In this document: piece after piece, positions 14,437 to 40,200 of the stretch | Layout of the letters: each line of letters opens with the position of its first letter | Position numbering within the stretch: position 1 is the first letter of the stretch | Assembly (NCBI GenBank): GCA_949152475.1 | Contig: OX424562.1 | Location: 2,728,001 to 2,792,000 of the forward strand | DNA length: 64,000 nucleotides | Direction: 5' to 3' | Source: Terebella lapidaria | Taxonomy: Eukaryota; Annelida; Polychaeta; Terebellida; Terebellidae | Program-made: the position numbers and the translations under genes | The notes under the pieces: generated by a model | What the model was told of the DNA's origin: nothing | What the model saw: only the letters and a program-made list of their open reading frames with translations | The model's database searches: none

Positions 14437-16255
14437 CTAGTTTTGGCACCGTGGGGACCGTCTGGTTTTCTTGAGAAGCTTGTTCAGGGACCGCGGGCGC
14501 TGGTCAACTGGGATGACCGTGTCTTTCTCTGTCAGCAGCAAAGCGCCTTTGTTACGTCCCGTGCTCTCCAGTGTCGAGTCTGCTGTGATCACCCATACAA
14601 ACTGGCCTCCTGCAGGGATTAGAACTTGTTACAGTGCTGCAAACAGACTACTATTTTACTTACATGTATTCATTATATGACAGGAACCCTTACTGAAACA
14701 TATCGTGTCATCCAATTTTCTGTCACATTTCCTAAATTTTATGGTGTATTTGACATCGCAATTGACCACTCTGTTCAAATATTGCCAGATAAATTTGAAA
14801 GAATTAAACATTTTTAATCCATCTTTTGAGATTTGTCAAAGGCCGAGTAATTAGCATCCCATATGTTTTACATCCGCACATATTTCCAGAAACACTTACG
14901 ATCATTGAGCACATCACAGCTGCAGCTTTCGTCCATCGTCACGACGACAGTTTTCCTGACCCTAGCAGCGCTCCCTGTCTTGGTCAAGTCTTTGTTGAAC
15001 TTCACACGACCGTTTCTCCGCACCACAGAGCCGTAAACTGTCGGATAAAACAAAGACGGGAAGATGAGAATTCCAAAGCCTACTCATGCAACATGAAGTT
15101 CAATTATTCACAGTATACCTTTTTTCCAGCATTTACCGGTAAATAAGTACAATTACATACATGTATACATGTATACTGAGACAATACAGTATATCAAACA
15201 ACAGGTAGAGCCACACCAAATTGTAAAGTTGGTCTATGGAATCGCCGCTCATTAAAAAACGAGTTTCACTTTTTAAAAAAGAAAATCGCCCCTACAAATT
15301 TCCACAATATCAAAAAAAAAAGTTTTTATTTCACCGCCGCCACTCATATTTCAAATTGGACTGTTAATGAGCAAAGCGGTTCGATATAAAATTCAGAAAA
15401 AATATGGTACTAAGCAGATTTCTTTTATTTTTCCAGGGAATTGTTGTACTATTCGTGGTATTAAATATGTGTCATCGTCCTTCCTAATCCCAAATCATTT
15501 CCGCAGATTTAATAATACCAGTACTTACATCTTTCTACATTCAATACTATGATTGGTCATAATGTCCATAGTTCGTGATAATGGCCAGTTCAACAATATT
15601 TATCATTGCATTGCAATCATGTATACAATTTGTTCCCTACCTGATTATATTGATTACATTCATTCTGATGCCTAGAGTTAGAGGCCATAAAAAAGTGTGT
15701 ATATCTTGCACAGATTTGTTTCATTCTTTGTTTATATGAGTTGGGCTACATGTGCACTAAGGTATATAATGTAAAGTTCATTGTAAAAACTCTTGATTGC
15801 ACATGTGTTACCTGTAATAACAATCTGAGTGGGAACATTTGACCAAAATATCCTCCGTATAGAAAATATTAGTCGAAAGTCCATTAAGCAAAACTCTATT
15901 TGTAAAAGCAAGTTTCCCGCATACAGAAAATTATTGTCGAAAATCCATAGAAGAAATATTTTTTTGTAAAAAAAAAAATTCTTTGTACAGAAAATTTTAG
16001 TCAAAATTCCATAGATGAAAAATTTTACTTGTAAAAAAAAAAATCTCCGTACAGAAAATTTTGGGAAAATATCCATAGATCAACTTTACAATTTGATGTG
16101 GCCTAAATGGGTATCCTCAACAAGTTGTAGCATATATTTTGAAAGATTTTGATTTATTTCCCCAAATCCAAATTGTATTTACCATGAGACGCAGAGCAGA
16201 ATACGTCCTTGAGCAGATTGGCATCAACGTTCTGGGTGTGACATTGTGGGCAAGC
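14437..16255 (-). CDS. Thioester gene exons 36-38: C-terminal netrin-like (C345C-type) domain
   Basis: Exons are 16183-16255 (phase 0/1), 14900-15037 (1/1) and 14437-14609 (phase 1 in, stop TAG at 14437-14439). The domain begins ACPQCHTQN, continues DVFCSASHVYGSVVRRNG, then has DESCSCDV and ends RRSPRCQN. Six cysteines fall in the pattern CxxC - FC - CxC - C of NTR modules, as in C3/C4/C5, PCOLCE and TIMPs. The conserved FC-(S/A)-(S/D)-x-V-x-(G/A)-x-V core is clear. I am confident of the fold but cannot say which NTR subfamily is closest. Confidence 0.85.
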
Positions 16256-19200
16256 CTGGAAATACAACTCACACGTATAGAAACCCGACCGAACAAAAAA
16301 AATCAGCCGTTATTGAAATGTGAAAGACAAATGTAAAATTGCACATAAAAGGGATACCATGAATTATGTGCATGGATACGATATCATAAACATATATTAC
16401 ATGGTATGTCTTGTTCTCTCCGCAAAATATGATTAATAGGCTTCAATTTAATAAACGACAGTACATGTAGTTTTCATTGAACAAGTTTTTTTTGCTAAAA
16501 ACTACAAATAATTCATGATTCACTGCATGAAGCCCCCAAGATCTCACCACGGGTTCGACGACAGTACATGTAGTTTTCATTGAACAAGTTTTTTTTGCTA
16601 AAAACTACAAATAATTCATGATTCACTGCATGAAGACCCCCAAGATCTCACCACGGGTTCTGGCTCGGGTTGTGACCCCAGGGGGCCAGGGAGCTCCACG
16701 GGCTGTCTAAGCTGGACTATCTCGTCCACATTCTCAAAGTTCCCCTGGTCCACGGCATTGAGCGGGATCTCCTCCTTCGTGCCACAGATCGTACGCAGAC
16801 TGTAGTCTGTCTCGGCATACACATCTAAATGACAGTACAAGTCATCTCTTATGATTTAGTAGTGACAGTGGTCTTTATAATGTGGAAACGAAATGGTGAA
16901 TCATTGTTTATGATGAGCTTTTATGATAAACAATTGATCTACACAATTTTAGAAGCATTTCGTCAAAATTAGTCACTTTAAGTAACTTTTGTAAGGGAAA
17001 AAATTAGCCCAAAGGCTAAGATAGGTTACCGGACAATTTTGGTTTGGCCATGGCAGCATTGGCAGGTAACAGACCTTGAGATTTACCAATCAAGGTTCGC
17101 AGTGTCAACATATGACCTTGGGATTTACCAATCAAGGTCATCCGTATGAACTTCGATGTAACCATTACATGTATGCGTGCGGCATTTGATATTCTATATG
17201 TTGGGTGGAATCGTTTAGGCCGCCTAGGTCAATTTACACATTCCAAGTCAGACATTTGGCACTCAAGGTCATCTGACGTCAAGTTCAAGGTCATCATTAG
17301 TTGTGCCATATATGTCTTCCTATATGTTCATAATGCAAACATGAGCTCTATCTGCAAGCATTTCATCTACAAAGGCAAATCTGGGCATTTTTTGACCCCA
17401 AAATGGCTGTTTTGACCTTTCAAGGTCATCGAAGGTCAAATTCAAGGTCACCACACAAGTCGGCATATATGACAGTGCCAATTTCTAAGCTCTATCTTCA
17501 AGCGTTCTATGAGTACAGTCCTGACAGCTCCCATTATGAAGGAAAAAAGTGCCGAAAATTTTCGAAGTCCAAAATTTTTTTCAAAGGGTGAAAATTTTTT
17601 TTTGCCTAGAAATGGCCCAAAATGGATAGTAATGTTATTTGGGGCGAAAAAATTTTTTTTCGCCGACTCGTCAAAAATTCAAAATGGCCGCCACACTGAG
17701 ATAGGCGATTCAAGGGCAACAAAACTTATACACGTCACAGAGGTATATGAGAGGAATCTTTTTAAGCAAAAATCTCAAAACTGATCAGACAGTTTTTGAG
17801 AAAATACAGACCAGGTGCAAATTTGAGCGTTTTTCGACCCAAAAATGGCTGTTTTGACCTTTCAAGGTCATCCAAGGTCAAATTCAAGGTCACCACACAA
17901 GTCGCCATATATGACTTCCCATTTGAAAGTGCCAATTTCTAAGCTCTATCTTCAAGCGTTCTATGAGTACAGTCTGGACAGCTCCCATTATGAAGGGAAA
18001 AAGTGCCGAAAATTTTCTAAGTCCAAAAATTTTTTCAAAGGGTGAAAAAATTTTTTTGCCCTAAAAATGGCCCAAAATGGATAGTAATGCGATTTGGGGC
18101 GAAAAAAATTTTTTTTGCCGACCCGCCAAAAATTCAAAATGGCCGCCACACGGAAACCGGCAGATTTAGGGCAACCAAACTTATACATATCACAGAGGTA
18201 TATGAGGGGAATCTTTTGAAACCAAAAACTCAAAACTGATCAGACAGTTTTTGAGAAAATGGCCGTCAAAGTCCAAAATTGAGCGTTTTTCGACAAAAAC
18301 GGCCGCCATTTTGAAAAAAATGCGAAAATCAAAAAACAAAAAAATACCTCCTTCTCAAAATATTTTTAGGCATTTTTGTGCAAAATTTCAGAAAGATTCG
18401 ATCGTTAACTTTAAAGATAAAAATGTTAACGCCGGACGGACGGACGGACGGACGGACGGACGGACGGACGGACGGACGGACGACGGACGCAACGCCATGC
18501 CAATAGGTTATCGGACCAAAGGTCCGGTAACCTAAAATTGTGACAGGTCGGTTTTAAAAGATCCGCAATTGGTCTGCAAAACTTGTTTAGCCTGATCCAA
18601 AACAGTAGTAATAGTATAGGCAGTCACGAAGTAAGTGTTACTTACTTTCGTCATCGTAATAGTCGAAGACCGACACGGATCCCGGGCGAGCGCTCGTGAC
18701 CACGATCTCCTCTACGACCTTGAACTCCACACACATCAGCTGACCACGCAGCAGCTGGGCAGGGAAAAATGGTTAGGAAAACAGTTTCTTATATCTCCTA
18801 TTTGTACATTCCTTTTGAGATTATTATTTTATTTCTGTGTGGCCTCCAAAAGGAGAGGTTACAAATAAAACAGTGTAAAATATATGTCATGTAAACAAAA
18901 ACAATGGAATCATTGAAATCTATCTTAACATCTAGTATCCATTGAAAATTTTCTCGTTTTCATGCATATTCAATGGGTAGCATAGACTGTCACTTTTAGT
19001 TTGGTATTGCTGTATTACAAAGTATTTGTATGGCTGCATGTTTCAAGTCTCACTTCATTGAAGTAGATGATAACTTTATTCTTTTCCGTCTCAACTCTCT
19101 TGATGTTGAGGGTCGTGTCTTGCTTCAGCTGAAACAATTGTATATCAATATAAGTCCGATTGTAATTTGACATCAAAGGAGGACTCCCTATCAAAATCAA

Positions 19201-22200
19201 ATTAACAAATTAGTTTAACTAACAATCTAACAAATTAGTTTCACACACATGAAGTATTCATTCAGATGACTTCAAAATCGAAGAAATTATATTTTTAAAA
19301 CTACTATCAAGAGATCAAGATCAAGAGAAACTAACTAGCGGGCCACGTCCTCAAACTGGGGAGAATGAATGAGTGGCAACTGATGACGTCATTGTTTTGA
19401 TGATGCCTCGGGCAACGGAGCACTTCCAGCATCTTTGGTTTCAGTGAAATGAGCCGCCTGTCGGGGCATCTCTCAAAACAATGACGTCACAGAAATTTAC
19501 GTCCTGTTTGACGTTTCTGTCAGCCAAGCACTGCCGAGTGGAAAACACTTGCAGATTTTCGGTGTTTTTGATGTTATATCCTCAGAACGATTTGTTTGTA
19601 CTGAACAAATTATACATATTTCATATGTGAACGAAGCTTCGAGTCTTTTCCATTCAAATGCATAGAAATATTTTCGCTATATGGAAGTTTTAACGGTAAT
19701 ACCATGAGTCGCAGGCCCGGATCTAGAGCATAAGCGTGACAGATGCACAATAACTAGACAAAACCCCAATCGGCCTGGGGTTCGGGGGCGCCGTAAGCCC
19801 CTGAGAAAATTTTAGCACTTGTGTGTTCATACAAGCATTCTGAGGCATGATTTGATCATGTTGATGAAGGCATTCGAAAGCAATTTTATCCATATATACT
19901 CCAAAAATACTATATTTTTTAATTGAAATAAGGTTTCATACATTCCCATTTGAATTCGCGACACAAATATTGAATTTCTGGGTTAAACTGAAATCTAACT
20001 TGAGACAAGGGCATGTAGAAACATTTGGAAACTATTGGAGGAGAACACTTTTATTGCCGCATAGTAATGAAGAATTGTTGTCATTGAATATATTATTGCA
20101 ATCTAAAAAGAATTGCATTCGTCACATTCTAGTAATATGCATTTGTGAAATAATATTTCATTGAATGACATTTATGGGTAATAATATATTTCTGTACAAC
20201 AAATTATATATTTATGTCTTAATAAAGATATCAATGACATTAGTACATTTACGTTCTAGAACATACCAAAATGTGATCAACATTGAACTTGCATGCGCAT
20301 CTACATTGCATGAAACAATGTACGTAGATCAGTAAAACTACAGCTTTGGACACTGGCAATCAAGTAGGCCTACTACTCCGTATATACAGCCACTAGGCCC
20401 CCTATTCGTAAACATTGCATATCCATCCAGATCGATGCTATATATGTATTACACAAAAACATAAAGTAATTGTTTTGTGCAAAAACAATTTATACAGGCA
20501 ATATATGGTCTCTCATGAAAGGAATAACAATGACACTAGCAACTGCCCACTGTATGGACTTTACGAAGAATGTTGCATTCTTTGATGGGATGGGATGTTA
20601 AGTCACACTGATCAATGCTCTGCTAATACATCCCTATATGGGGGAGGGTGGGTAAAGTGGGTAGGGTCTACTGTGGTGGGTCGAAAAGCGTGAATGTTGG
20701 TAGAAAAACAAGGTTGGAGGGAGAGGGGGATGGAGGACAAATTACCAGGGAGTCATTATTTTGCCCTGTATCTGAAGGCATGTATGTGTAAACTAGGAGG
20801 ATCAGAGAAAACTGACAGCAGGGTCCGATATTTCTCACCGATGCCTACCATTGCACTAGAAAATCTGACCGATGCACGTGCATCGGTGTGCACCGGTCTA
20901 GATCCGGGCCTGGGTCGAAGCCAATACACATTGATAGGAAGTCCTCCTTTAATGTATTGGTTTCCTGCACACAGTACAACTATTTCTCACAGAAAGAAAA
21001 AACATGCTCCTTGCAGGTTTGAGTTTGGTGCTGCGCTGCCTTGAATAACAATATTTGCACACTCTAATTTATAACATCAATATGCATGCAGAGTTCCCTG
21101 CAGGGACACTGACCTGTTCTACAGAGTCCTTGTCTGGCGTCCAGCCGCTGACCATCTTAGCCACCATCATAGCCATGTTAGTGGTGTCATCAGGTCCCTC
21201 ATACCTACAGTATAGAACATGTGCATTCAGTTCTCAATTCACGGTCTATATCTTAACAAAACTAATAAATGTTTCGGTCTTTCCCCTCTGTTCCTTTGCA
21301 ATCAGATGTATCAATCAATCCTTCATATTTCATACATACATGTTTTAATGCTTGTAACTTGAACAATCTGGATATCATTTATTCTTTACATTTTCATATA
21401 CATATCTTGTATTTACAATATTAAACTGACCTGCCTCCACCCCCTCTCCTGTTATGGACTTCCCCCCACCATGGACCCCCCAACTCCCCTATGACCTCCC
21501 CCCTCCCTGCCATGGACCCCCCAACTCCAGTGTACCCCCCACCATGGACCCCTCAACTCCCCTATGACCTCCCCCCTCCCTGCCATGGACCCCCCAACTC
21601 CAGTGTACCCCCTACCATGGACCCCCCAACTCCCCTATGACCTCCCCCCTCCCTGCCATGGACCCCCCAACTCCAGTGTACCCCCCGCCATGGATCCCCC
21701 AACAGACCTGAAGCAGGTCTTGAGAATACGGTGGCGACAGTTCTCGTCCTCGCTCCTAGAGGGCGTCACGTGTAGGGTGATGGACGGCTTCGAGCCGCTC
21801 GATATGTCCTGGATGTGGTACTTCATCGTTGACTGGTGTGGCATAAAAATAGTGGGTTTAATCATGGAGTGCATGTTTTACATGACAGTTGTTTTACGTA
21901 TATATATCTCCTTTTTCAGTAATCAATGATTTCCTAGACTTTTCGATCATTTGCAATTTATAACACAGAAATATTTCTTTTAAGTTTCAACATGTTCAAT
22001 ACCTCACAAAATACCAATTTTTTTCATCATGATTATATACATGTACATGTGTGAATTAAGATATTAAAGAATTTATGAAACAGGGTCAAGCAGACTGTAA
22101 AATCATGAAATTTCCACGCACCTGCACGAAGGCACAGCCTCGTCCACTGGTCTCAAATGTGATCTCATTTGGGACGGTGACCTCCTGGCGTTGTAACAGC

Positions 22201-25200
22201 AGCTTATTATCATTGTTCAGGACGAAGTTCATGCGTCGATTACTCGCGCTCTGTGTCACCTTGACGCGAACGTTCCCTTGCTCCCCATACACACGCTCAG
22301 CAAACATCGCGAGCGCCTGCAGCCCCACGACAGTGTCCTGCTCCGGCGGGAAAAATGTATAATCGCTATGCTTTTCATTTGTTGGTGTAGAATTCAAAAT
22401 GATCTCAATTAATCAAGATGTTCAATGATCAACTTGAAAAAATATTTTGTGAATAAACTGAATGCTATATCAGTCAATGCTAACTTAGAGGAACCAGCTT
22501 TGTGATTTACATTGTCTGCAATGACAGAATGTTAAATTATAGACATTGATATGCAATAGAAGCTTCTCACCTGAGTGGAGTGGAAGCCGCCTCCGTGATT
22601 CCTTGCCATCGTCAGCCAACGAACGATGGGCAACACCTCCATGATAACGCTACTGGACATCTGTAGTTTTGCCATCAGTGCGTATGCGGTTGTTTCGACC
22701 TCTGCCGAACTTTCTGTGCCACTGGCCCAGGACATGGTGCCATCTGTCAGGATGTGAGTGGTCGAGATTTTAGACATGACACAGTTTTGACATGAAGACA
22801 TTGCTAGCAAAGTTTCATTCATTCAAGTTTTATTTCATTGCACAGTTCAATCATCATTCATCATTTATCAAAACCCATAAATTCACCCAAAAACCCATAT
22901 AGTCTATGAAATTGCACTGCATGCAAGTTCAAGTCTATGTATCTGCATGTATATTCATATGTAGGAAGCCTGAACTGACCGTATGTGTTAGCCAGCGCGT
23001 CGAGTCTATCCATGAATTCCCTGGTGATGGCGTGTTCCGGATCCCACTTGGAGAGCGCGTACGCCGTCAGAGCGATGGTGTATGTGTCATTGATCGTCTG
23101 GATCCTCAAGCAGTCCACCGCTCCAGACACCATGAAACTCTGCAAGGATACAGCAGGCCTTGTCTGGTCATCATATAGTGACAGTCATTTTTTATTTTTT
23201 CATTTTAAGGTCACTCAGTTTGTGCACGGTCACTCGATTCGCAATGACTGAAATTGCACAAGTCAGACTGCATGAATTGGAAAGATGAATCATCTCGTAT
23301 GATTTATTATCATTCAATTCTTCACACAATATCTCCGCATCAACCAAAGAAAATGTTTCCCCAAAACAAAGAGAGGAGATATTGTAATATTTACGTCTTT
23401 ATTCTGGCCGGCCTCCAGCATTGCTCCCAGTACGTAAGCCGTCAGTCCCGGGCTGTTGTCTGTGTTGGATGAAAGTCCTCCCTTCATCGACTTGTGGATG
23501 ATCCGACCAACCTGCAACCATAGCAAGTGTCACCATAGCAACAGTGTAACCTTGGCAACAGTATAACCATAGCAACAGTGTAACCATGGCCTCAGTGTGG
23601 CCAACAGACAACAGTCCATGAACAGTCCACAACAGACTTTTTTATACAAAAATAGATTGTTTTGGAATGTTTATTCCGGACTATACAACTAAACTGTGTA
23701 TTCCAATCAAGATTCACTTCTACATCAAGTGAATGTTAGGACATGAAGTTTCATGAATTATTCAAAGAAAACAGAAGCTTAAGCACATAATTTTGGACAG
23801 TCACTCACGTGTCTGTAGCATCCATTTTCCATCTGGTTGCTGTTGAACCACTCCTGTGTTTTCATCAGGTCGTCCTCATCGATGTCAATGTATTGTTTGG
23901 CCTGTGAGAAGGACTTGAGCACGAACGCCGAGAGCCAGGTGCTTCCGGAGTCATCGCTGGAACCAAACGCACTGTATGACCCGTCCGGGTGTCTGTACGT
24001 CAACTCCCGCTGGTAACCTGCACGCGACATTATGTATATTGGGTTGTTCAGGGTGATATTAATGAGGTGTTAATATTTTTGTTAATAAGTTTTTTATAAT
24101 CGTATCTCTGAATATGATCTCATTAAATTGGCCGTAAGCTATTGTCTCATTTTTGGGGGTCTTTTGGCATAATGAAAATCTTCTGTAAATTTGACAGAAT
24201 ACAACTCATGTACATGTAAGCAGACTATTTCATAATTAATGTCACATTCTTTTCAACTCAAGTTAAATATACATTTCTCCTTAATTTTAAGTTGTTATAT
24301 TCCTCATGAATTGAATTTGTTCTTGCCAAATATTGGTAAATGATCCTGTCAAGTACGCAACATGTATACCAAATACCAAGCCACTGTATACATGGTATAG
24401 AGAGCTAACCTGAGCGCAGATAGCCGAGTGTTTTGGACTCGATTGCGTCTGTCAGCTGGTTCGTGTTGGTCAGGTACTGGAGAATATAGATGTTGGGCGA
24501 GAACCGCAGCATTGTTTGTTCTCCACAGCCCGTCGGCAGAGCAATCAAGTCCTCCAAACCAGACAGAGCCGGGCCCATTACATCACCTGTTGATTGGAAA
24601 CTGATCAAGTTGATACGGTATATTCTGCTGATGTGAGGTCAGTGAAATAAAGCAAAAAAAAAAAATAATAATATTAATATGTCGCTGAGTATCAAATCCA
24701 GCAGACACTCAATTCCTCCACAGTAAGATATATATGTCTAAGTTCGTGTAAATTACAAGTACTCATAAGTCAAGAAGTCATCAAGACGCACCCATCACAC
24801 TGACGTAAGCCTTGGCGGAGTCGGCTACCACGTCTGTCGGGAGCGTCAGTGACATCGTTCTCGTCTCCTTCGACCCTGTAACCATGGCAACATCACTTTT
24901 ATACATGTAAAAAGTCACTACTCATGAATGTACAACTCAACAATATTAAACTTTTCTGAGGTCAGGAGAAATACATGTTTTCGTTGTTTGTTAGCTACTT
25001 GAGTATATAAATCACCGATAACTGATAAAGGTATTAGATCATACCTGAGGGACACACAAAGTCACTGTCCGCAAATTCTTCCTCTTTGCCTTCGGGCTGT
25101 CGATACAAACATAAAGACAATGCAAGTCAATAATTCCAACACAAACTCTTTCATAATTGACATAATTTGTCCACCTACGAACAACATCAAACCCTATCAA

Positions 25201-28200
25201 GTCTAAGCTTCACGAACCTCGATCAGCAACTCTCTGATGACTGTGTCCCGCACTCCAATCTGTGTGCTCATTATCATGTTCCCACAAACTCCCGCCTTCT
25301 CGATGGAGACGGCCTGTCAGGGAAATAACAAATTGCATCCATTACAAAACGGAAAGTTATTGAAACTTGACTCATAGCCTGGTACCTATTTCAAGAAAAA
25401 TCTAAATTTACTTTGGCCGATGAAGTTTACGACTCAGCCTGCTACATCCATGTTAAAAGGAAAACTTCCGTTAAAATAGACTTAGGTTTTTTGTGGAATA
25501 GGTCTGTGATGGCACCATACCGTGACTGTGATATTGATGTGTCCGAGCTCTAGCGCGGTGATCGGGAAGGTTTGTGTGGCTTTCTCCTGACCACACACAC
25601 AGACCTCAGTGGACGCAGAACCAGAGGCCAGTCGGTACTTCGTGCTGGATTCCAGCTCCATCTGGATCTAAGGGTAAAAAGTAAAAGTGGAGTCAGGGTC
25701 ATAACGATAGATTTGTGCATTATCTCAAGGCTTAGACTGGTGTTCTGAAAGATTCAGCTACGAAAGCGACAGTCAAAGTTTAATTTTCACAATATTTTAG
25801 GACAGTAAACATGAAATTTGTTGTCTTGAATGATGAATATCACAGTCAAAGTACTGTCGAAGACAGAACGGATCCAGAACCAATTCAATTTACATCAGTA
25901 TGTGCATTTGAATAAAGAATAGCAATTAGAAAAGTAGTAAATAGTCCTATAAATTCGAGGGAGTGTACTTACGACGAGGCACTCGCTGAGGTAGTTGAAG
26001 ACAGAGACAGGCATGTGCACGGTCTCGCCGCGTACGACCGAGTACGGTAACGTGAAGGACAAGAAGAAAGGTTGGAAGGTCTTGAGCGATGTCTCCATGG
26101 AGATGCCGAGTCCGTCCTCGACGTGTGAGCAAGTCGCCCGTCCCACCCACTCCGTGATCGTGTCCGGGGCCGTCTGGGGCAAGGAGGCCACACCCGACGG
26201 TCTGGAGGGAAGAAGGGCGAGTTCGAAATGTAATTTGTTCATCAGTGGGGTGTTGAAAGAATATATTTATGTTGGATTTTTAACACATAAAATTTTGTCA
26301 ATCAATGAACAAACATATTATCAAAGGATCTGTTGAATTCTGATCATAAATTTAATTAGTATCAACAATTTACCAACAAATTATTCCAAATCTATAAGTG
26401 AAGAGTATACAGACTCATGAACATATTTGCGATGTTGTGACATACCCGACGGTGGCGAGACTCCAGAGCCAGGTCTCGGGGAAGAAGCTGCGGACGGAGT
26501 CGACGACTGGGGTGTTGACGGGGGCCATGGGGGCCGGGGCAGCGGGAACAGCAGGGCTTTCCTCCCTAGCCAGGCCTGGGGCTCCAGGGAGGGGCATCGC
26601 TAGAGTGGGGGGAGGGGGGGAAGGTTTCACATTGTGGAGTTTGTAGTGAGCAGATGTACATGTAGATATCATGGCAAGATATGTTTTTTTAGTAACTTAC
26701 TGACACAAATAATTGATCATTCTGTTGAAATTATATTGAATTCGTACGCAATTTTATGCACACATATTTGATAACTGTAATTGATATTATTTCTTAATTC
26801 TAATTTTATACAAACTGAATTAAGCTCAAAGTTTTCAGAAATGTTTTCATTTATCAGGAATATTCAGCAAGTAACTTAACATGCTTGTTCATACAAAGAA
26901 TATATAGCCATGCAATGTTATCAGTACTGCTGTATGCAACAGACTAAGTACATCTAGCTTGATCATAGAATCAAAGTATAATACATATATGTCTCTAGGC
27001 TTGGTCATATCTCTAGGAATCTCTAGGTAATCAGGTAAGTTATGAATATAGACAAAGAGGAATCATGCAAACCATGACATCAACATGCTGTCTGGAATCA
27101 GAAATACACAATCCAAGTTTAGAGTGATTTTAGCAATGGAATAGCAGGGCTAGAATTTCGGCAAGAATCCGAGAATCGATTCTCGCAAAGATTCTCACAA
27201 AATGCCCCTTGATTCTCGCAAAATATAATGGAGTATATGAGAACAGGATTCTCGCAAAATTTTACGAAATTTTAGCCCTGTAATAGTATAGTGTGTATCC
27301 TATTTGGATGTCCTTTTTGGTAAAACAATAAATGAAAATTATACATGCGTTTAGATCTAAGATTAGAACTAGGAAGATACCTGACTTCTAACAGATATAC
27401 ATGACCTTGGTTTAGGGAAGGGTAATCATATGGCTACTGACAAAATCATACTTTTTTGTGTGTCTCTGATTGTTGTTCAATGTTTTAGGAGCAAGCAGAA
27501 AAGCGGCACGTAACTATGACAAACTCCCTGGTAACTAGCTATGATGCGTACCAAAGGCCACATCAAACACGGGTACCGGCATCTCATCATGTTCATTGTA
27601 ATAAGAGAAATAGGGGTAGTCGGGTTGTGATTCACATGGGCGCGTGTCAAGTATGAGGTCACTCAACACGATGACACTTGTATCCTGGGGGGAAAAAAAC
27701 ATAACAAATATCATATCTATCTGGAGCGCTGATGATAGCTGTGAGCCTGGCACCTGTGATGTCCATTTTGGGAGATATCTCTTTCAAGAATTTCTTCCCC
27801 ACAACTTTTCCTTCCTAAGCTCACAAGATAGAGGCTTACCAGCGGCCTCTAAATTGTATTGATGACATGGCTGTCCCTCACTTCCACACGGACATTCATT
27901 AGCAGTTACTCAAAGATCATCGAGTCTTAGGTAAGATACCAGGTAATGCTTATGTGTAGAAGCATTGTTTGCTAAATAATTTTGTTTCAAAATTTTCATT
28001 TGTGATGGTTGAGCGAACCATCCTGCAAATAATTCAAGAATTCAAGTCAAGTTTGATCTGCTGTTCGGTTTTTTGTTCCAGACTTGAGCACTGAAAACTC
28101 ACTCAAATAAAAACTTTTCATAAAAAGCAGACCAGAAATATCACAACATAGAATCTCTGGTCTTGTTTTAGTTTTCACATTTCTTGATGATATCATGATA

Positions 28201-31200
28201 TCTTTGCCTCATTGTCTCAAAATCATACAACTACGTGTGGGGACTCCAGGTAGATCTACTGAAATCATCCTTCATCTCATTATCCAACGTGGTTTCTCAA
28301 CCCAATACAGCTTATCAGGTCGAAACATGGCAAAGTACAGTCTACACTGTACATGAATGTTGTACATCTCGAGCCCAGCGTACATGTAGTTAACTCCCAC
28401 CACCAGCGAAGGCTTCTAATACAGTTTATCCCTGGCCAGAGGTCAGCATCCTGAGCTCAGACAGGGAAATCCTCAGGACATTAATTACATCCAGGCATGC
28501 GGGTACTACTTAAAGGGTCCAGCAAACCGATATAAACTACATGTAACACATATTGAGCGAGGTTGATACAGTAAAAAAATCACTAAACACATGCAGAAAC
28601 ATCTCAGGGAAGGTTATGGACAAGCGTTATGCACCTTCTGGTACAGGTCGGACAGGAGACGAGTACGAGTAAAGGACGCGGTGCTGGATCAGGGACCGTT
28701 CACAGGGTCGGGTGTTCAACACGAGGTCACTGATAACCGCCAGAGATGGGCTCTAACCCCGGCAAATAGAAAACAGCATGATCAAAACAAAGGCATCAAT
28801 GTCTGTATGCCTGATAAAGAAGCCATGATATGTACGACTGCGCAAAGTGAAATATCACACTCATCATATTATGTATACAGAAGATGTCTGCTGTAGAAAA
28901 GTTCAAAGGTCACCTAGTTTGAAAAGTCCTTGCTGAGGCTGGAATTCATGAAATGGATGTAATTTTTATTCCCCATTGGTAGAATTCACATAGAACATGA
29001 TTTTCACCTTTTGACACATACATGTGCCATGCAACCTACATGTATTTATGATTCTTCCAAAACTTGCAAGTTTCCGAGTGCATAATATAATTTTGAATAG
29101 ATTCTGCTTGCGGCTGGATAGTTCCTTCCATTAAACTTCATGATTCCAAGACTGACAACATTCCTCCTCCTGGCCCTCTGAGTATGTTAGAGTGTGCACC
29201 AGATTGCAGAAATTTTGATTCGGTGAACACTTTGTTAATTTGAGTTCTCGCACAACATCTAAAGCAATCGTGCAATTAAAAAGCAAAAACAGTTTGCACT
29301 ACCACCGTTTGAAATTCACACACGTCATATCCATTACATTGCTTATACATGTATATATTCCACAAGATATACATGAAATAACCTACGTCCGGCCCCAGGC
29401 TTTCCGGCCCCAGACTTTCGTCGCATAGATCTACTGCGTAGATAGACATGATGGGGCCAATCACGTTTTTCACATGGCCTTGTATCAAGGTCAAGGTCGC
29501 TCAGGATTTCTAAGTTAGGGACCTTTGACACACAAATATCAAATCACAAAAAAAATCATCAAATCATCAATCACAAAAACATCCTTTTTACAATTTTTCA
29601 ACTGCAATTATTTTTAGGTTACCGGACCTTTGGTCTGATAACCTATTGGCGTGGCGTTGCGTCCGTCGTCCGTCGTCGTCCGACTACATTTTTATCTTTA
29701 AAGTTTACGGTCGAATCTTTCTGAAATTTTGCACAAAAATGCCTAAAAATATTTCCAGAAGGAGGTATTTTTTCAGTTTTTTTATTTTCGACATTTTTTC
29801 AAAATGGCGGCCATTTTTGACAAAAATTTTGGACTTTGATGGTCGTTTTCTCAAAATCTGTTCAGTAACTTTTTTTCTTATTGATGCATAACACTCCTCA
29901 TATATACCTCGTTATAACTTTCCCATGTTGAATTCTCCTATGCTTTATAATGGGACACATTATGCCTAATATCTAACTTAATATTGAGATTAGAGACTAG
30001 GAATCAATTGTGGACATATAGGAAATGGTATAAGCTGAATATTCTCGTGACCTTGAATTTGACCTCTGACCTCAGTTTCAAGGTCAGAGCACAAAATGGC
30101 TAATATCTCGCTTATTATCAACTTTACAGTTTAGGAATCAATTGTGGACATATAGGATATGATATATGCTGAATATTCTGATGACCTTGAATTTGACCTT
30201 TGACCTCATTTTCAAGGTCACAGGAAAAAATGGCTAATATCTTGCTTCTTATCGACTTTACAGTTTAGGAATCAATTATGAACACAATAGGAAATGATAT
30301 ATGTAGATTATTGTCATGGCCTTGAATTTGAAACTTGGCCTCATTTTCAAGGTCACAAGACAAAATGGCTAATATCTCACTTATTATCGATTTTACAGCT
30401 TAGGAATCAATTGTGGACATATAGGAAATGATATATGCTGAATATTCCTGTGACCTTGAATTTGACCTCTGATCTCATTTTCAAGGTCAAGAGCACAAAA
30501 TGGCTTATCTTGCTTATTATCGACTTTACAGCTTAGGAATCAATTGTGGACATATAGGAAATGATAAACGCCGAATATTCTGATAACTTTAAATTTGACC
30601 TTTGACCTCATTTCCAAGGTCACAGGACAAAATGGCTAATTTCCCGCTTCTTATCAACTTTACAGCTTAGGAATCAATTATGAACATATAGGAAATGATA
30701 TATGTAGATTATTGTCTTGATCTTGAATTTGACCTTTGACCTCATTTTCAAGGTCACTGAACAAAATGGCTAATATCTCACTTATTATCGACTTTACAGC
30801 TTAGGAATCAATTGTGAACATGTATACTAGAAATGATATATGCTAGACATTCTCATGACCTTGAATTGACCAATGCACTTATTTTCAAGGTCACAGGACA
30901 AAAGGCTAATATCTAAAATATATCTTGTCTGGTAACCTTTCTTAGCCCTTGGGCTAATTTTTATGATTTATTTTGCATAACATTAGCAATTATGATCAAA
31001 ACATATTTAGTATTCAAGTTTAATTGACGGATATCAAGATCATTTTCTTGCTATTCCCATTTCCCACCTTGAATGCTTCACTGGAGTCGACATATCGAGA
31101 GTAAGCACTGTAACGCCCGGGATACGGTTGAGGCATTATGTCCCGCTGTTGACGATTCTTTCTACCTCGCCCACGATTTCTTCTTCTCTCTTCTCTTCTC

Positions 31201-34200
31201 TCTTCTCTTGTCTTCTTCTTTTCATCTTCTTCCTTCTGCTCCTGCTCTTCTTCTTCTTCTGCAAATAGTTGAAAGGAATGGCAATAGGGTCACAAAACAA
31301 AACTTACATAAGGCCACATTTTTTTATTAATAGGTTTATGGATTTTTTTCACCCATTTTCAAGATCGAAGGAGGGAATAAAAAAAATTGGATTCTATTTT
31401 TTTTTCATTCTGGAGTTGTATAACAGAAAAAAATGCTCCGAACATATCTCGAAGGGGGGAAAACATCCTTTTTGTTTCATATTAAATTGCCTAAGTCCAG
31501 GGCTGGTGGACCATTTTATCAAGGAAATGCAGCATTCGAAGAGGTTTTTATAGATTTAACATAAAAAATCTAATTTTGGGGAGGTCGGAGGGGATGTAAT
31601 AAATAAAAAAAAGTGATTTTCATTTTGTTTTTTTTTGGTTTTGGCAGAAAACAGGGTCGACGGGTCCCTAAACCTATTTAGGTCCCTAAACCTATTAATA
31701 AAAAAAAAACATGGCCTAATTATGTGGAACAATGCGTAATCAATCTTATTATTCAAGCAAATCCCAAGATCAAAATACTATACAATCCTTATCAACAACA
31801 ACCAGTATTTAACATGTGTGAAAAGACAACTTACGAATGCGTATTTGCTCCTGGCAGTATTCGTCGGTATAACCCCAGTGACTGTACCCTCTGGATGGCA
31901 CTTTTGTAGGTATCCGCCACAAAAGCTATCGGAAAAAAATAGACAGTATTTCATGCGAGACTACAACTATGTGAGACTACACTTGAAAACATTTTTATAC
32001 TATCAAATTTCTGATAATATAAAGACAAAACAATGTATTTTCACTTATTAAGTTATTGCTGGTGAACACAGACACAAACACTACTATTTCACTGAAATTT
32101 TCTAGTTGCAGGCTATCAATTTTATATGTATTTTACTACACTGATTGTGACATACTGAAGACATTTCGACCCGATCACCAGTGGCGAGAAGCTTGATGCT
32201 CTTGTCCATGACCCCATAGCCACAAATGGACCCTGGTGAGGCCTTCAGTTCCACGCTCACATCGTCTCCCGGGGCAACTTCCGGGCTACTGAAGGACATT
32301 TCCACCTGGCGAACAACAAAGTAGAATCAATTTAATCCATCATAGCTGATTCTTTGAAGTGTTTTCTTTATTCCTCGATGAATATTTCCAATACATGTTT
32401 ACATCTGAAGGGATATGCATGAATTCTCAATAGTATTTAGAAGCTAAGTAATTTACAATTACATACTTTGTTTTTGATGCAGTGTTTGACATTGAATGTC
32501 TTGCTGTCTGCCACAATCTCTCCATCCCGTCGCACATAATAAACAACAAGACTGGATTTTCCCCAAACATCGTCGGGCAGCTGAACGTCCACAGTGATGC
32601 CGTTGGCTGGTGACGAATAAATAATAATAACAATAATAATATAATAATAATAATAATCAGATTTGTTTAATGACAGTCCATGATGATAGGCAAAATTCTG
32701 CCTATCTTCCCCATTTCAAATTCAGTGTTCACAATTTGTATTTGCTCACAATTACACGACATGGATTTATTTGACTTTCCAATTATTGTGAAGACTACAA
32801 TATCACACTGGTGGTCAACTTGAGTTACCAAAATATTTTGAAAACCACTAAATATTGGTAAACCTACCTCCATGTGTGTGTTCTAACTCTCCTTCCATCA
32901 CGATACTATACTGTGTTGTTATCTGGAATACAAGTTTTTATACAGAATTCATCAAAACTATCCATTCAAATTATAAATAAAAATTTGAAACAACAGAAAT
33001 TTGAATGTGCCAATTTTCAAACAAAAATGCCGAAAGATTTTTCTGGCAACTCAAAAAGATTTAATCAATGATGGATGAAGAAGGAAATGTCATTCAGTTA
33101 TTGTACTCTAGGTAAGGGAACCTGAAAACCTGAAAATTCCCATCATTCCCGAGGAGTAATGCACTACACACAGTGAGTTAATAATCATTATCCCTACTCG
33201 TTGCCATAGTTACCTTGTAGTAGAAATGGTGGCTGTGTCCCTGATTGTACGCAACATGTGCGGCGAGTCGACCCCCACATTCGATTTCCTCCGACACGGA
33301 GTCGATGACGAGGAAGGAGTCACTAGGCGAGTACCAGGCTTTGACCGAGGTCATCTCATCTGGCATCTGGTATAAGTCATGGTACGGGTCGGAGGTCGGA
33401 ATGTCTGCAGTCACTATGGCCTGAGGACAGGAAGAATGCATTGAGGTTCATATTTCAAAAGTGTGATCATTTCAGTCATAAAAATTTGCATTATCATAGA
33501 GAATTCAAATTTTTTTGGTAATAATACCATTCAATCAAAAAACTAAGATACAAAGGAACTTCACACCATCAAAATTACAGTAACTTTTCAGGCTAAGACC
33601 CAATTAAAGACTCACTGAGATCATCAAGTTTTGCTCGTTGTCGGGTAGCTCCAGGTTCGTCCAGGTCCACATAGCGACACCGTTGCTATCGGTAACCAAG
33701 GATAGCTCCTGTGGGGTGTCAGGATGCTTGGCTGTCACAGTAACAGTCACACCTTGAGCAGGAGATCCTGTTTTCACGTCCGTCACGGAAACCTGCTCAG
33801 GGGAACGAGAAAATTACCCAGAATCATCAGTTAGGAGGTTATTGCATAAACAAGAACATTACATTCAACTAGACGTCAAGGCCTAAAGATGCCTTGGAGG
33901 CATTTCGGTGTGATGAATAATTTATAATACTAGATATCGACGAAAATGAAAAATGTCGACAAATTTCGGGTCAAGGTCAAAGTTCATCCATAATACCCGC
34001 TAGACATGTTTGTCTAGGGCGACGAGTCCGAAAATACCATCCGTTTCGCTCTACGACGCACCGTTTCCGAGATATCGACGAAAACAAAAACTGCCGACTC
34101 GGCAAAAAAATTTCGGGTCAAGGTCAAAGTTAATCCATAATACCCCTTAGACATGTTTGTCTAGGGCGACGAGTCCGAAAGTAACGTCCGTTTCGCTCTA

Positions 34201-37200
34201 CGACGCACCGTTTCCGAGATATCGACGAAAACGAAAAATGCCGACTCGGCAAAAAAATTTCGGGTCAAGGTCAAAGTTCATCAATAATTCCCCTTAGACA
34301 TGTTTGTCTACTGCGACGAGTCCGAAAATAACGTCCGTTTCGCTCTACGACGCACCGTTTCCGAGATATCGACGAAAACGAAAAATGCCGACTCGGCAAA
34401 AAAATTTCGGGTCAAGGTCAAAGTTCATCAATAATTCCCCTTAGACATGTTTGTCTAGTGCGACGAGTCCGAAAATAACGTCCGTTTCGCTCTACGACGC
34501 ACCGTTTCCGAGATATCGACGAAAACGAAAAATGCCGACTCGGCAAAAAAATTTCGGGTCAAGGTCAAAGTTCATCCATAATACCCCTTAGACATGTTTG
34601 TCTAGTGCGACGAGTCCGAAAATAACGTCCGTTTCGCTCTACGAAGCACCATTTCCGAGATAACGACGAAAACGAAAAATGCCGACTCGGCAAAAAAATT
34701 TCGGGTCAAGGTCAAAGTTCATCAATAATACCCTTTAGACATGTTTGTCTAGTGCGACGAGTCCGAAAATAACGTCCGTTTCGCTCTACGACGCACCGTT
34801 TCCGAGATATCGACGAAAACGAAAAATGCCGACTCGGCAAAAAAATTTCGGGTCAAGGTCAAAGTTCATCAATAATACCCCTTAGACATGTTTGTCTAGT
34901 GCGACGAGTCCGAAAATAACGTCCGTTTCGCTCTACGACGCACCGTTTCCGAGATATCGACGAAAACGAAAAATGCCGGCTCGGCAAAAAAAATTCGGGT
35001 CAAGGTCAAAGTTCATCCATAATTCCCCTTAGACATGTTTGTCTAGTGCGACGAGTCCGAAAATAACGTCCGTTTCGCTCTACGACGCACCGTTTCCGAG
35101 ATATCGACGAAAACGAAAAATGCCGACTCGGCAAAAAAATTTCGGGTCAAGGTCAAAGTTCATCAATAATTCCCCGTAGACATGTTTGTCTAGTGCGACG
35201 AGTCCGAAAATAACGTCCGTTTCGCTCTACGACGCACCGTTTCCGAGAATTTCGGGTCAAGGTCAAAGTTCATCCATAATACCCCTTAGACATGTTTGTC
35301 TAGTGCGACGAGTCCGAAAATAACGTCCGTTTCACTCTACGACGCACCGTTTCCGAGATATCGACGAAAACGAAAAATGCCGACTCGGCAAAAAAATTTC
35401 GGGTCAAGGTCAAAGTTCATCCATAATACCCCTTAGACATGTTTGTCTAGTGCGACGAGTCCGAAAATAACGTCCGTTTCGCTCTACGACGCACCGTTTC
35501 CGAGATATCGACGAAAACGAAAAATGCCGACTCGGCAAAAAAATTTCGGGTCAAGGTCAAAGTTCATCCATAATACCCCTTAGACATGTTTGTCTAGGGC
35601 GACGAGTCCGAAAATAACGTCCGTTTCGCTCTACGACGCACCGTTTCCGAGATATGCAGGATGAATCAAGGATGACTCAGCAAAAAATTATTTCGACCTC
35701 TAGGTCAAAGGTCGTTTGAGGTATCGATCCCAAAATCAATAGGGTTCTTCCCTGGTGATATATAAACCTCCGTGCAAAATTCTGCAACTATTGCCTGAAT
35801 ATTTTTTGAGTTATCGTCCGGAAACCAAGTTCCTCGATTTCATCCTCACGGACCTCACGGACCTCGGAGCCGGATCAAAAAAAAAGGTACACCCTAGAGA
35901 TGTTTGTCTAGGGCGACGAGTCCGAAAATAACGTCCGTTTCGCTCTACGACGCACGGTTTCCGAGATATGCAGGAAGCCTCAAGGATGAATCAGCAAAAA
36001 ATTATTTTGACCTCTAGGTCAAAGGTCGTTTGACGGATCGATCCCAAAATCAATAGGGTTCTTCCCTGGTGGCATATGAACCTCCATGCAGAGTTCTGCA
36101 ACTATTGCATAAATATTTTTCCAGTTATCGTCCGGAAACCAAGTCTTAAAATTAGCCTTGATTTCATCCTCACGGACCTCACGGACCTCCGATCCGGCTC
36201 AAAAAGAATAGGGTTCTTCCTCATATCATTTCTGACTTGCGGTGAAAATTTGACAAGGATCTGTCAAGGCAATCTAAAGTTATCGTCCGGAAACCAAAAG
36301 TGGCGGAAGAAGAAAAAAAAAAAAAAAAAAAAAATTCTGCTAAAACCATAAAGGCATTTCTGCCGAAATGCCTTAATTACAAGTAAATTTGAGGTGCTGC
36401 AATATAGTTGATCTATTTTTTAATCCCGTAAATGTTCCAAAATGTATCCCAATATCAAATATTTCCAATAAGAAATAGATTCTGCACCCCAACATACCTT
36501 GCCGTGGTAGGGCAAGCCTGGTTTGAAGTATTGGGCCATGTCGACCATCTCCAGTTTGTACAAGTCAAACCCAAGCTTTGGAGTCTCATAAGTAGCATTC
36601 ATCACTACTCCTAGAAGGGCAAAAATTATCCATTTTATTAATTTATCATTGGATGCAGTGAAATATGTTATTTCTAAGTTGATATTTGTATTTGTAGATA
36701 CTAAGTCCACGCCCTGTACCTGTCCCCTCCTCCGTAACCATGGCGTTCATGTCCACATGGGCGTAGTAATACAGGTGTTTGGAGGCTCGTGTCAGGCGAC
36801 TAGAACCAATCAAGTCCTGGACTCGAATGTCAAACTTGTGACATCCGTTGATCTGCATGAGAAAAAATTTACACAGTTATATTGGATATATGCAAAGTCA
36901 AAAATTGACTCTTACGAAATATAGCATGACATGTATTGATATTAACCACATTGTTGTACATTTTATCAACTCATCTTTAAACTCACATTGCAACAAATTC
37001 TGCACATTCTTAACAATAAATTAAGAATTTATCTTTTTTCTGTTAATCGAGTCCCATACCTGGACATCAATGTTTTGACACTGGAAATCACTGCCTGAGG
37101 ACAGATACATATAAGCCGGGGGCGCAGTCATACACATATTGACCGTCAAATTGCCCTTCACTGGCTCACCGTATGTGTAACTGGAAGCAAGCGATACAAC

Positions 37201-40200
37201 TATATTCACAATACTGAGCACAATAAGTATGGAGCAATGAATATACATGAAAGCTCCTAAACTATCTGGGGGTCCTGTCATTCAAGACAGCTTTCCAAAA
37301 TTTCAATCAATACCACATATATCAGGTTACTATTCAATAAAACATGGGTACTTTATGATTATAATGTAGATACATTATGATTACCGGTACAAGAGATTGT
37401 TGTTAATATTGAATATCCCCCCCCCCCCGTGTTCACATTTTTACCAAGGTTTTAAATGAGGTTTGAAATTCACCACATACATGTTCATAAGTATCATCAA
37501 TGAATTATGATATGTCAATGAAACCGTATGATCTTCCACCGAAATGTTAAATTTTTTAATAGTTTACAATACTTATTTCTTTCGTATAAACTTGGTTACA
37601 TTCTTATCCTGTATGCTTTACGCAATTCTCATGTTTAATGTATGTTGGAAGCAAAACTACCTGGGGATTGAACTGATTCCACACTGAAAATATCAATACA
37701 AAATAACCCATGATGCCTGGAATAGATGAGTGTGGCACAGGACATGTTTTGCTAGTCATAGTCTAGAACTAAAAACTTGGTACCCGAAAAACTGCCCCAT
37801 TCAACTACACAACAAACTTGAACACTGAATACCATTGGAGCAAAAACAAAACATAATACGAAACTAGGCCACGTCAATTTTTTTAACATCCTTCGGTGTC
37901 GGATTGTAAAACTGCCCGAATTCCGGAAGTTAGTTGTTGGGTAAAACCGATCACAAATATCCTTTATGCAAAACAATGGTAATTTGAGCATTGCGGAAAT
38001 GTGACCATGCATTCAATGCATTTTTGTTGTTCAGAGCAGAAAAAAGTCGCATAGCACAACATATGATGGTGAATAATCTGGTGTAAAAGAGGTTTTCCCC
38101 TTTGAAAGTAATTCATTCATGTTGAATTCCAATTATGATCTGATAATTGATAAACACTTGATACATGTAATCAAAATGAGCGTAAAAAATCTGTCATTAT
38201 CTTTAATTGTAGCTGTTCAGCCGATTTCATTCTTGTTAAAATTATCATCATCTGATGTAAATCTATCTAAACTACGTGCAAAGTCCATATCTGACTGTTT
38301 TGAATAGCAAAAATTAAAGGAGGATAGTTCTGACAGCAGTTCTGTGTTTATGTTAAAGATTGCCGTTTTTATGAGATGATAATTTCATAATATCATCAAG
38401 TACCAGTAATAAGATATCCCGAAAACTGAACATCAACATCCTGTTTCCGTAACACATTATGTAACGTTTTCACTCCTAAAATTTTATACACACAGTTGTT
38501 GGTTTCTGTTCAGAAAAAAAAACCCACCTAAAATCGTGAAATATTACACCAATATCCGTTGCTACGGTTACTCACTGAGCGCACACTTCTGATTCTACGG
38601 CCTCGGCCCCAATAGACAGATACGTCACGGGGGATATCACCACTTCAAACTTCGGCAGCACTGTCAAAAGAGAGGCGTAAAAATGAGTCTGGCTGAAAGT
38701 CTCTTCTTCTGTCTATTAGTTAAGTGGAACTTTGTAAACACTCGGTTTTTAGTGTCTAAACATAAAGCACATAGCTGTGTCTATACAAACAGAAGTAATT
38801 GGTTTCTTAGTTTTTAATTCAATAGATTTTGACATTCTACAAATTGACTAGTAAGAGTCAAACAGTACAATTTACAGATATTTACAGCACTTTATCCATA
38901 ATGAAACTCTTTTCAGATTTATTCTCGAAGTTTTTTCATCTTCAAAGGATCCACAATCACATATTTTGTGCCATATTTTTTATATGAATGCTACTGCTAC
39001 AATAGTATATGAGACGATTCAGCAGAAAAGAATGATAATATCAATAATGATGGACATCGTACCATATTCCTTGACCTCGAATGTCCTGACCTCCGTGTAT
39101 CCGGACATCTGGACGTGTATCTTCCACTCCCCGTAAACCGGGTCCGAGGACAGCTCCATAGAGAACTCTCCAATACCTGGAGGTAAAAATGTGCCTCGAT
39201 CATTAAACACAAAAATAAAAATCATAACATATTTTCCCCCTCGGGAATTATCCAAAACATATCGTACACAGCTACTCTCAAATGTAAATATAAAATGGTA
39301 ACTGTCCAAGCATAAAATCGGTCAACAACTTTTTCCTAAATACATGTGTACAGCAATACAACATAAAATGGTATTCCTTCTCCTAAATTACACAATTCAC
39401 ACATAATTGACATCAAGTTGACACAGGGGTCGTTCTGTCTCACCCTGAGTAGCCTGAACATCGACATCTCTCCACTGCATGATCCGGACTTGCTGCGGGC
39501 TGGTGATGTACACCAGGGGAATCTGTGGCAAGTACAACAATTCTTTGAGTCAAGCCTATAGATACAAGTGTTCCACTAGCACTTATGTAGCACACAACAT
39601 TAACTTGATCATTAAATGACTATATTAAGTCTCAATATTTTTGTTAAATTTTTGTTACTGTCGTTACAGAAATGACCAATTTTCATTCATGAGAACTGGA
39701 CATTCTCAAAATGGAATTACAAGAGCCTTTTTACATCACTATCTCTGTTTTCGTACATTTTCTAGCCTTGGCTTCAGTTCTTCCTGAATCGTCAAGACTC
39801 GGAACTTTACTGGAAATGCACAAGAGAGAATTGAGAACACCATCATGAGTACATTAAAATACAAAATTTATCCCACTGAACCTATGAATATTCATTATAC
39901 CACCAACAATAACTGTCATGAAAGAATACTTACAGAAAATGTTCAATTTTCGAAAACTTGAAGATGTTCATAAATTATCATAATTTATCATTTACATGTA
40001 TATCTATTGATTTATTTGACGAGATTCACCAACCTTCATCCCCAGGTTTATACAGCGGTTTGTCGGTCTCGATGAAAGTGACATTCACTTTTAGATCTCT
40101 GTTATTGACGAGGAAGACTTCTGTTGTTTCGTCGAAGCTGTAGGTGGCGCCACCTGTCCCCTCCGCCACAAACCGCAGGGACATGTCACCCGACGATATA

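What the first reader, a model, noticed from the sequence alone, without database searches (positions are those of the whole stretch)
27552..29522. Three tandem, mutually exclusive bait exons in a thioester-containing protein
Seen: exons 18A, 18B and 18C each have six variable codons, then (L/I)SDLxL(D/N)TRPCE at residues 7-18, then unrelated tails: basic/Gly-rich, Ser/Tyr/Pro-rich and acidic/aromatic. All enter in phase 0 and leave in phase 1, so joining two breaks the frame. Known: Drosophila Tep2 and scallop (Chlamys farreri) TEP vary this same region by alternative exons. Inference: one locus makes several baits with different protease specificities.
Basis: partly seen in the sequence, partly recalled or inferred. 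Interest (0 to 1): 0.88.

Follow-up and report, generated by a model that had tools for sequence, protein, structure and literature searches.

The report
Swappable bait exons in annelid macroglobulin
A worm's gene for a protease-trapping protein carries three interchangeable versions of the exon that encodes the start of the protein's protease bait, a known kind of arrangement seen before in snails, scallops, shrimps and flies.

Summary
Three minus-strand exons (18A 29522-29387, 18B 28752-28635, 18C 27684-27552) share an 18-residue head with TRPCE; their tails are unrelated. Each enters in phase 0 and leaves in phase 1. One copy alone is open; none, two or three copies shift the frame and meet a stop. 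Codon differences in the motif are mostly synonymous, as for three coding copies.

The gene is an alpha-2-macroglobulin (A2M) by sequence, not an insect-type TEP or complement factor. The head is the last MG6 strand; the tail is the first part of the bait. The rest of the bait, up to FPETWLW, is one constant exon, so isoforms differ in only part of their possible cleavage sites. The genome is an annelid, probably Phyllodocida.

The same genome holds a CD109/TEP-type gene with a larger array: 12 FPETWL sites, 10 sharing one donor context. There the duplicated unit is the other one: bait plus FPETWLW.

Alternative bait exons are known from molluscs, shrimp and Drosophila (PMC7016707), so this is a new member of a known kind. 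No RNA data could be reached: exclusive use and different specificities are inference.

The parts
29387..29522 (-). Alternative exon 18A (136 nt): VPNLEILSDLDLDTRPCE + basic/Gly-rich tail
   Evidence: weakest acceptor of the gene by the matrix used; tail holds a 15-bp tandem repeat at 29388-29419
28635..28752 (-). Alternative exon 18B (118 nt): SPSLAVISDLVLNTRPCE + Ser/Tyr/Pro-rich tail
   Evidence: acceptor below all 34 constant ones
27552..27684 (-). Alternative exon 18C (133 nt): DTSVIVLSDLILDTRPCE + acidic/aromatic tail without K or R
   Evidence: acceptor above all 34 constant ones
31068..31258 (-). Constant exon before the alternatives; polybasic, ends ...YVDSSEAFK in phase 0
   Evidence: its 5' half is a GAA-rich repeat, so its start is less certain
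26446..26599 (-). Constant exon after the alternatives: second part of the bait (39 residues before FPETW, incl. GLAREE) and FPETWLW
   Evidence: single PETW in the window
25973..26201 (-). Constant exon PDTITEW...VFNYLSECLV (A2M domain)
24410..24586 (-). Exon with the thioester motif GCGEQ
14437..44442 (-). Predicted extent of the A2M gene, 36 placed exon positions, from a signal-peptide-like start to a stop; at least one exon unplaced between 33214 and 32606
   Evidence: all placed introns GT-AG
14437..16824 (-). Four predicted C-terminal exons after the receptor-binding domain; NTR/C345C-like at best
   Evidence: first of them aligned to the tail of P0002 and P0008; Pfam NTR only E 0.07, 13.4 bits against a cut-off of 21.9

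Best explanation
The locus is an annelid A2M gene in which one exon, coding for the last MG6 strand (GLxVxTDLxLxTRPC in other A2Ms) and the first part of the bait, exists in three tandem copies, of which one is used per productive mRNA. Shown: the copies, their homology, the phases, the frame rule, coding-type substitutions and the A2M-type sequence. Inferred: splicing picks one copy; mRNAs with none, two or three copies carry a premature stop and would be lost; the three proteins are the same except for the strand and 21-27 bait residues. By the established A2M mechanism, cutting the bait releases it from a central channel, changes the shape and exposes the thioester, which traps the protease; so the variable half changes which proteases fire the trap fast. 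18A (8 K/R) should favour trypsin-like proteases, 18C (no K/R, 7 aromatic) chymotrypsin-like or other ones, while the constant half (with Arg) gives all isoforms a common base line. Splice-site strength suggests 18C as the default and 18A/18B as regulated copies.
For: Three in-frame copies and the one-copy rule over all 8 combinations. Heads alike, tails unrelated. In codons 7-18 differences by codon position are 4/1/9, 3/1/6, 4/0/6 and residue changes 3, 1, 3 against about 7.9, 6.2, 6.2 for random changes (chance 0.0000-0.0111). A2M domains, best match to A2M-type structures. The head matches a strand found before the bait in 51 of 120 listed homologs. Bait variation in the same protein region is reported for Biomphalaria A2M (PMC7016707, passages) and is seen in tick database isoforms. 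Bait sequence sets specificity and Gly-Ser baits stay functional (PMC8267569, abstract); bait retraction triggers the change (PMC9352918, abstract). Acceptors: 18A -1.54 and 18B -0.02, below all 34 constant ones; 18C 5.72, above all 34.
Against: No transcript was seen. The copies were found by a protein motif, which biases the substitution test towards conservation. The frame rule follows from duplicating any exon of this phase and does not by itself show regulated exclusion. The 18A acceptor is poor and could be unused. Donors of the three copies are weak too but not all outside the constant range (2, 10 and 2 of 34 lower). No good RNA-pairing device was found. The constant bait half may dominate cleavage.
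Confidence: 0.8

Rival explanations
1. Only one or two copies (18C first) are used; the other(s) are old duplicates that still look like exons.
For: 18A and 18B acceptors score below all 34 constant acceptors while 18C scores above all; no RNA evidence for any copy.
Against: All three reading frames are open over 39-45 codons and the motif keeps residues while third codon positions change, which decaying copies would not do for long; all three phases and GT-AG borders are intact.
Confidence: 0.14
2. Copies are cassettes that can be combined in one mRNA, as the tick A2M isoforms suggest for pieces of their bait.
For: Tick isoforms carry different sets of pieces in one bait block.
Against: Here every two- or three-copy mRNA shifts frame and stops inside the second copy.
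Confidence: 0.02
3. The three copies do not serve protease specificity; they tune another property, such as pre-cleavage by convertases at the basic 18A tail, folding of MG6, or binding to targets after activation.
For: The unit contains a structural MG6 strand, not only bait; 18A has RSRSMRRKS, a possible convertase site (read from the sequence); half the bait is constant.
Against: The tails, not the strand, are what differ without limit, and in human A2M the bait is the part that sets specificity (PMC8267569, abstract).
Confidence: 0.2

Closest known systems
Biomphalaria glabrata A2M, variants BgA2M-A to -C (PMC7016707; passages and Figure 3 legend seen)
   Same: A2M gene; three variants; alternative exons (17 and 18) in the bait region; transcripts seen by the authors
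   Different: Variants are coded by one or two exons there; three single tandem copies here. Whether the Biomphalaria unit carries the MG6 strand could not be checked (figure not held). Annelid, not mollusc
Biomphalaria TEP2: 12 mutually exclusive tandem exons over 30 kb (PMC7016707, passages)
   Same: Tandem, exclusive exons for the variable central region
   Different: iTEP type; its exons conserve their C-terminal part, whereas the window's copies conserve their N-terminal part. It resembles the C11 array of this genome instead
Chlamys farreri TEP (six mutually exclusive exons) and Drosophila Tep2 (five isoforms), as reported in PMC7016707
   Same: Same protein region varied by alternative exons; scallop forms reported to respond to challenge
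   Different: TEP type, not A2M; original papers not seen
Fenneropenaeus chinensis A2M-2 (six variants) as reported in PMC7016707
   Same: A2M bait variants, reported to respond differently to Vibrio
   Different: Crustacean; exon unit not seen
Tick A2M database isoforms (Dermacentor)
   Same: Isoforms differ in one block of the A2M bait: 11 of 11 listed D. andersoni rows (plus one P/L site that follows the source), 6 of 6 D. albipictus, 3 of 3 D. silvarum
   Different: The TRPC strand is constant there; short in-frame pieces come and go within the bait
Hilsa shad A2M, twelve splice isoforms (PMC6650032; search listing and start of abstract only)
   Same: A2M isoforms by splicing
   Different: Vertebrate; details not read

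Membership tests
Alpha-2-macroglobulin protease inhibitors | MG domains, A2M, thioester and receptor-binding domains | tested here: met
   Pfam MG2, MG3, MG4, A2M_BRD, A2M, TED, A2M_recep above cut-off; SVA also, just above (23.2 against 23), overlapping A2M
Alpha-2-macroglobulin protease inhibitors | Intact thioester motif | tested here: met
   GCGEQ at 24530
Alpha-2-macroglobulin protease inhibitors | Closer to A2M than to CD109, TEP or complement | tested here: met
   453.7 (A2ML1) and 404.4 (A2M) against 375.3 (CD109), 208.7 (TEP1), 205.4 (C3) bits. The tree holds only proteins from the list, so it does not test this; no fork holding the window row reached 95
Alpha-2-macroglobulin protease inhibitors | Inhibits proteases by trapping | not testable with these tools
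   Needs expressed protein
Complement C3-type | Anaphylatoxin domain | tested here: not met
   No ANATO match at E 0.001. Against this reading: the annelid relative P0002 is named 'Complement C3-like'
Complement C3-type | C-terminal C345C/NTR domain | tested here: inconclusive
   NTR E 0.07, 13.4 bits, cut-off 21.9; P0002, P0008, P0032 gave none at E 0.1, though lancelet A2Ms carry it in the precomputed list
CD109 / insect-type TEP | GPI signal or C-terminal cysteine stretch | not tested
   -
Mutually exclusive tandem exons | Homologous neighbouring exons with matching phases | tested here: met
Mutually exclusive tandem exons | Only one copy keeps the frame | tested here: met
   All 8 combinations translated
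Mutually exclusive tandem exons | Each mature mRNA holds exactly one copy | not testable with these tools
   No RNA reads
Mutually exclusive tandem exons | An exclusion device such as docking/selector pairing (not essential) | tested here: inconclusive
   12 pairing tests; one 15-base perfect match beats 40 of 40 shuffles but brackets the whole cluster

The most novel reading that the evidence does not exclude
One annelid genome has diversified its baits twice, independently and with complementary exon units: its A2M swaps the MG6 strand plus the first part of the bait, its CD109/TEP-type gene swaps bait plus FPETWLW. With ticks varying short pieces inside the bait, the bait would be a repeated target of exon duplication in which each lineage uses a different unit. 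In the A2M the strong-site 18C would be the default and the weak-site 18A/18B challenge-induced.
Probability: 0.3. Interest if true: 0.6.

Novelty: new member of a known kind. Interest (0 to 1): 0.42.

Why it matters
The bait decides which proteases an A2M catches, so splicing would give an animal without antibodies several inhibitors from one gene. The three exons make this testable by junction reads and isoform assays. Among the papers listed by six searches of the open-access library (lists capped) I saw no annelid case. Bait variation in an annelid, molluscs and arthropods, with different duplicated units, bears on whether it is ancestral or was invented repeatedly.

Tried and rejected
Rejected: iTEP or complement identity. 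A fourth copy in the window. Combined inclusion of copies. Docking/selector pairing as the device: the one striking match, 30436-30450 with 26855-26869, brackets all three copies and its upstream arm lies in the 134-bp repeat.

Led nowhere: a genome search with PF00207 and one with the 134-bp repeat unit did not complete. At least one exon between 33214 and 32606 was not placed (27 open candidates, none convincing); homologs also have residues before the polybasic exon that my model lacks. Lancelet and oyster A2M isoforms are collapsed at 90% identity in the protein database and could not be compared. A gene model of the C11 gene was not completed.
Full report
What is there. On the minus strand the window carries a multi-exon gene predicted from 44442 to 14437. 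Between the constant exons 31258-31068 and 26599-26446 lie three exons: 18A 29522-29387, 18B 28752-28635, 18C 27684-27552. Lengths are 136, 118 and 133 nt. The upstream exon leaves in phase 0 and the downstream exon needs one base carried over, so each copy fits alone. All 8 combinations were translated through the next three exons: the 3 single ones stay open; the one with no copy runs out of frame to a stop far downstream; the 4 with two or three copies stop inside the second copy. A six-frame motif scan of the window found three copies and no other, and PETW, SEAF and GCGEQ occur once each.

More than chance. The 18-residue heads share 11 identical positions in each pair, and 0 of 1000 shuffles reach the alignment scores; the tails do no better than shuffles (935, 69, 463 of 1000 reach the score). 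In codons 7-18 the differences by codon position are 4/1/9, 3/1/6 and 4/0/6 for A-B, A-C, B-C. Residue changes are 3, 1 and 3, against about 7.9, 6.2 and 6.2 for the same number of random changes; chance values run from 0.0000 to 0.0111 over the six directions. This fits three coding copies under constraint, but the copies were found by the protein motif, which biases the test in the same direction.

What the gene is. Pfam finds MG2, MG3, MG4, the bait-region domain, A2M, TED and the receptor-binding domain, and a borderline SVA match (C-terminal exons not included). Of 1869 database hits, 120 are listed: the top one is an unnamed-function fish protein (1059 bits), the second an annelid protein named Complement C3-like (Pseudopotamilla, 989 bits, 41% over 62% of the query), followed by fish, Owenia, lancelet, mollusc and other A2M-type proteins. 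Against solved structures the part after the bait scores A2ML1 453.7, A2M 404.4, CD109 375.3, TEP1 208.7 and C3 205.4 bits. A quick tree of 34 rows, all from that hit list plus the window, puts it next to Pseudopotamilla (SH-aLRT 89; no fork holding it reaches 95). Mitochondrial COX1 of the same assembly is 88% identical to Pilargis wolfi and 85-86% to several nereidids and other Phyllodocida, with a saccocirrid also at 85%. The organism is an annelid, probably a phyllodocid. The first of the four C-terminal exons matches the tails of P0002 and P0008; an NTR/C345C module is possible but below the cut-off.

What the exon encodes. In 51 of the 120 listed homologs a pattern of the type TDL.LETRPC lies before the variable stretch that ends at FPETW; at least one of the 51, frog P0118, looks spurious, and few vertebrate rows match. 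The head of 18A-C is that strand; the tail is the beginning of the bait. The next 39 residues up to FPETW, with GLAREE and two K/R in all, lie in the constant exon 26599-26446. So the isoforms swap a structural strand and 21-27 bait residues and keep the second part of the bait.

How it probably works. Human A2M with a Gly-Ser bait stays functional but is not cut by any tested protease, and inserted substrate sequences decide which protease cuts (PMC8267569, abstract). Cleavage lets the bait retract from a central channel and triggers the change of shape (PMC9352918, abstract). By the same logic 18A (8 K/R of 27) should add trypsin-type sites, 18B (3 of 21) fewer, and 18C (0 of 26) other types (counts). 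This is inference. With an approximate splice-site matrix, the 18A and 18B acceptors (-1.54, -0.02) lie below all 34 constant acceptors and 18C (5.72) above all 34; the donors (0.51, 1.67, 0.41) have 2, 10 and 2 of 34 below them. It suggests 18C as the default copy. Exclusion may rest on frame and decay alone: of 12 pairing tests one beats 40 of 40 shuffles, in a layout that would loop out all three copies.

A second array in the same genome. Searches of the assembly for the thioester domain (17 matches, 8 places) and for the part after the bait (3 places) led to other loci. On C11 (+) a gene whose joined pieces score best with CD109 (246.7 bits; A2M 200.4) has 12 FPETWL sites between 4569535 and 4594730, upstream of one PDTITSW exon at 4596724. 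Ten of the 12 have GGGTA at the same distance after FPETWL; in the other two (4575288, 4588640) it is shifted, they lie 154 nt behind another copy, and they look like remnants. By the matrix only five of the 12 have a donor above 0 and one has no acceptor above 0, so how many are used is open. Three copies are 94-95% identical and collagen-like. An MG6-type strand (GVLVLTD) was read by eye in one stretch upstream of the array. This is the mirror image of the window's unit and resembles Biomphalaria TEP2, whose 12 exons conserve their C-terminal ends (PMC7016707, passages). In 20-30 kb fetched at each of the other six places, one FPETW-type match was seen on C3 and none at the other five, where the motif may simply have diverged. 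Arrays were thus seen at 2 of 8 places; the other six were not modelled.

Comparison with what is known. Duval et al. report three bait variants of Biomphalaria A2M by alternative exons 17 and 18, variants of CD109 and 12 of TEP2, and cite scallop TEP (six exclusive exons), shrimp A2M-2 and Drosophila Tep2 (PMC7016707, passages only; the originals were not seen). In ticks, 11 of 11 listed D. andersoni rows differ in one bait block, apart from one P/L site that follows the source database; so do 6 of 6 D. albipictus and 3 of 3 D. silvarum rows. There TRPC is constant and in-frame pieces come and go. Bait variation by splicing is therefore established; the window adds an annelid A2M with a unit that includes the MG6 strand. 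Whether Biomphalaria A2M uses the same unit could not be checked, because figures are not held.

Limits. No transcripts; predicted exon model with at least one exon unplaced; no second annelid genome compared; organism inferred from one mitochondrial gene.

Noticed in passing
G000:C11:4569535-4594730 (loci L015-L017): A CD109/TEP-type gene of the same genome has 12 FPETWL sites in tandem, 10 with the same donor context, several collagen-like: a larger alternative-bait array with a different exon unit.
   Followed up: partly
29962-30914 and 33961-35655: Two intronic minisatellites (134 and 147 bp units) both carry a nuclear-receptor DR1-like motif: AGGTCAAAGGTCA with up to one mismatch occurs 20 times in the window, against 0.09 expected; most matches lie in these two arrays. 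How common the unit is genome-wide did not complete.
   Followed up: partly
31178-31260: The constant exon before the alternatives begins with a GAA-rich repeat coding for Glu/Lys/Arg; several other A2Ms have an RKKRS-type basic site at this place.
   Followed up: partly
29388-29419: The 18A tail ends in a 15-bp tandem repeat coding for the repeated Gly-Ala-Gly, a hint that tails grow by slippage.
   Followed up: no
26855-26869 and 30436-30450: A 15-base perfect inverted match brackets the whole cluster; none of 40 shuffles reached it, one of 12 tests.
   Followed up: partly
G000:C2:55540001-55560000 and 55840001-55860000; C11:13687740: Two C2 loci give the same translated matches, as for a recent duplicate of another TEP-type gene; the C11 locus near 13.69 Mb reads GSAEQ where the thioester motif should be.
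   Followed up: no
G000:C417:44633-46450: Second COX1-like stretch, in two pieces with TGA codons, on a 61-kb contig besides the 16-kb mitochondrial contig C438.
   Followed up: no
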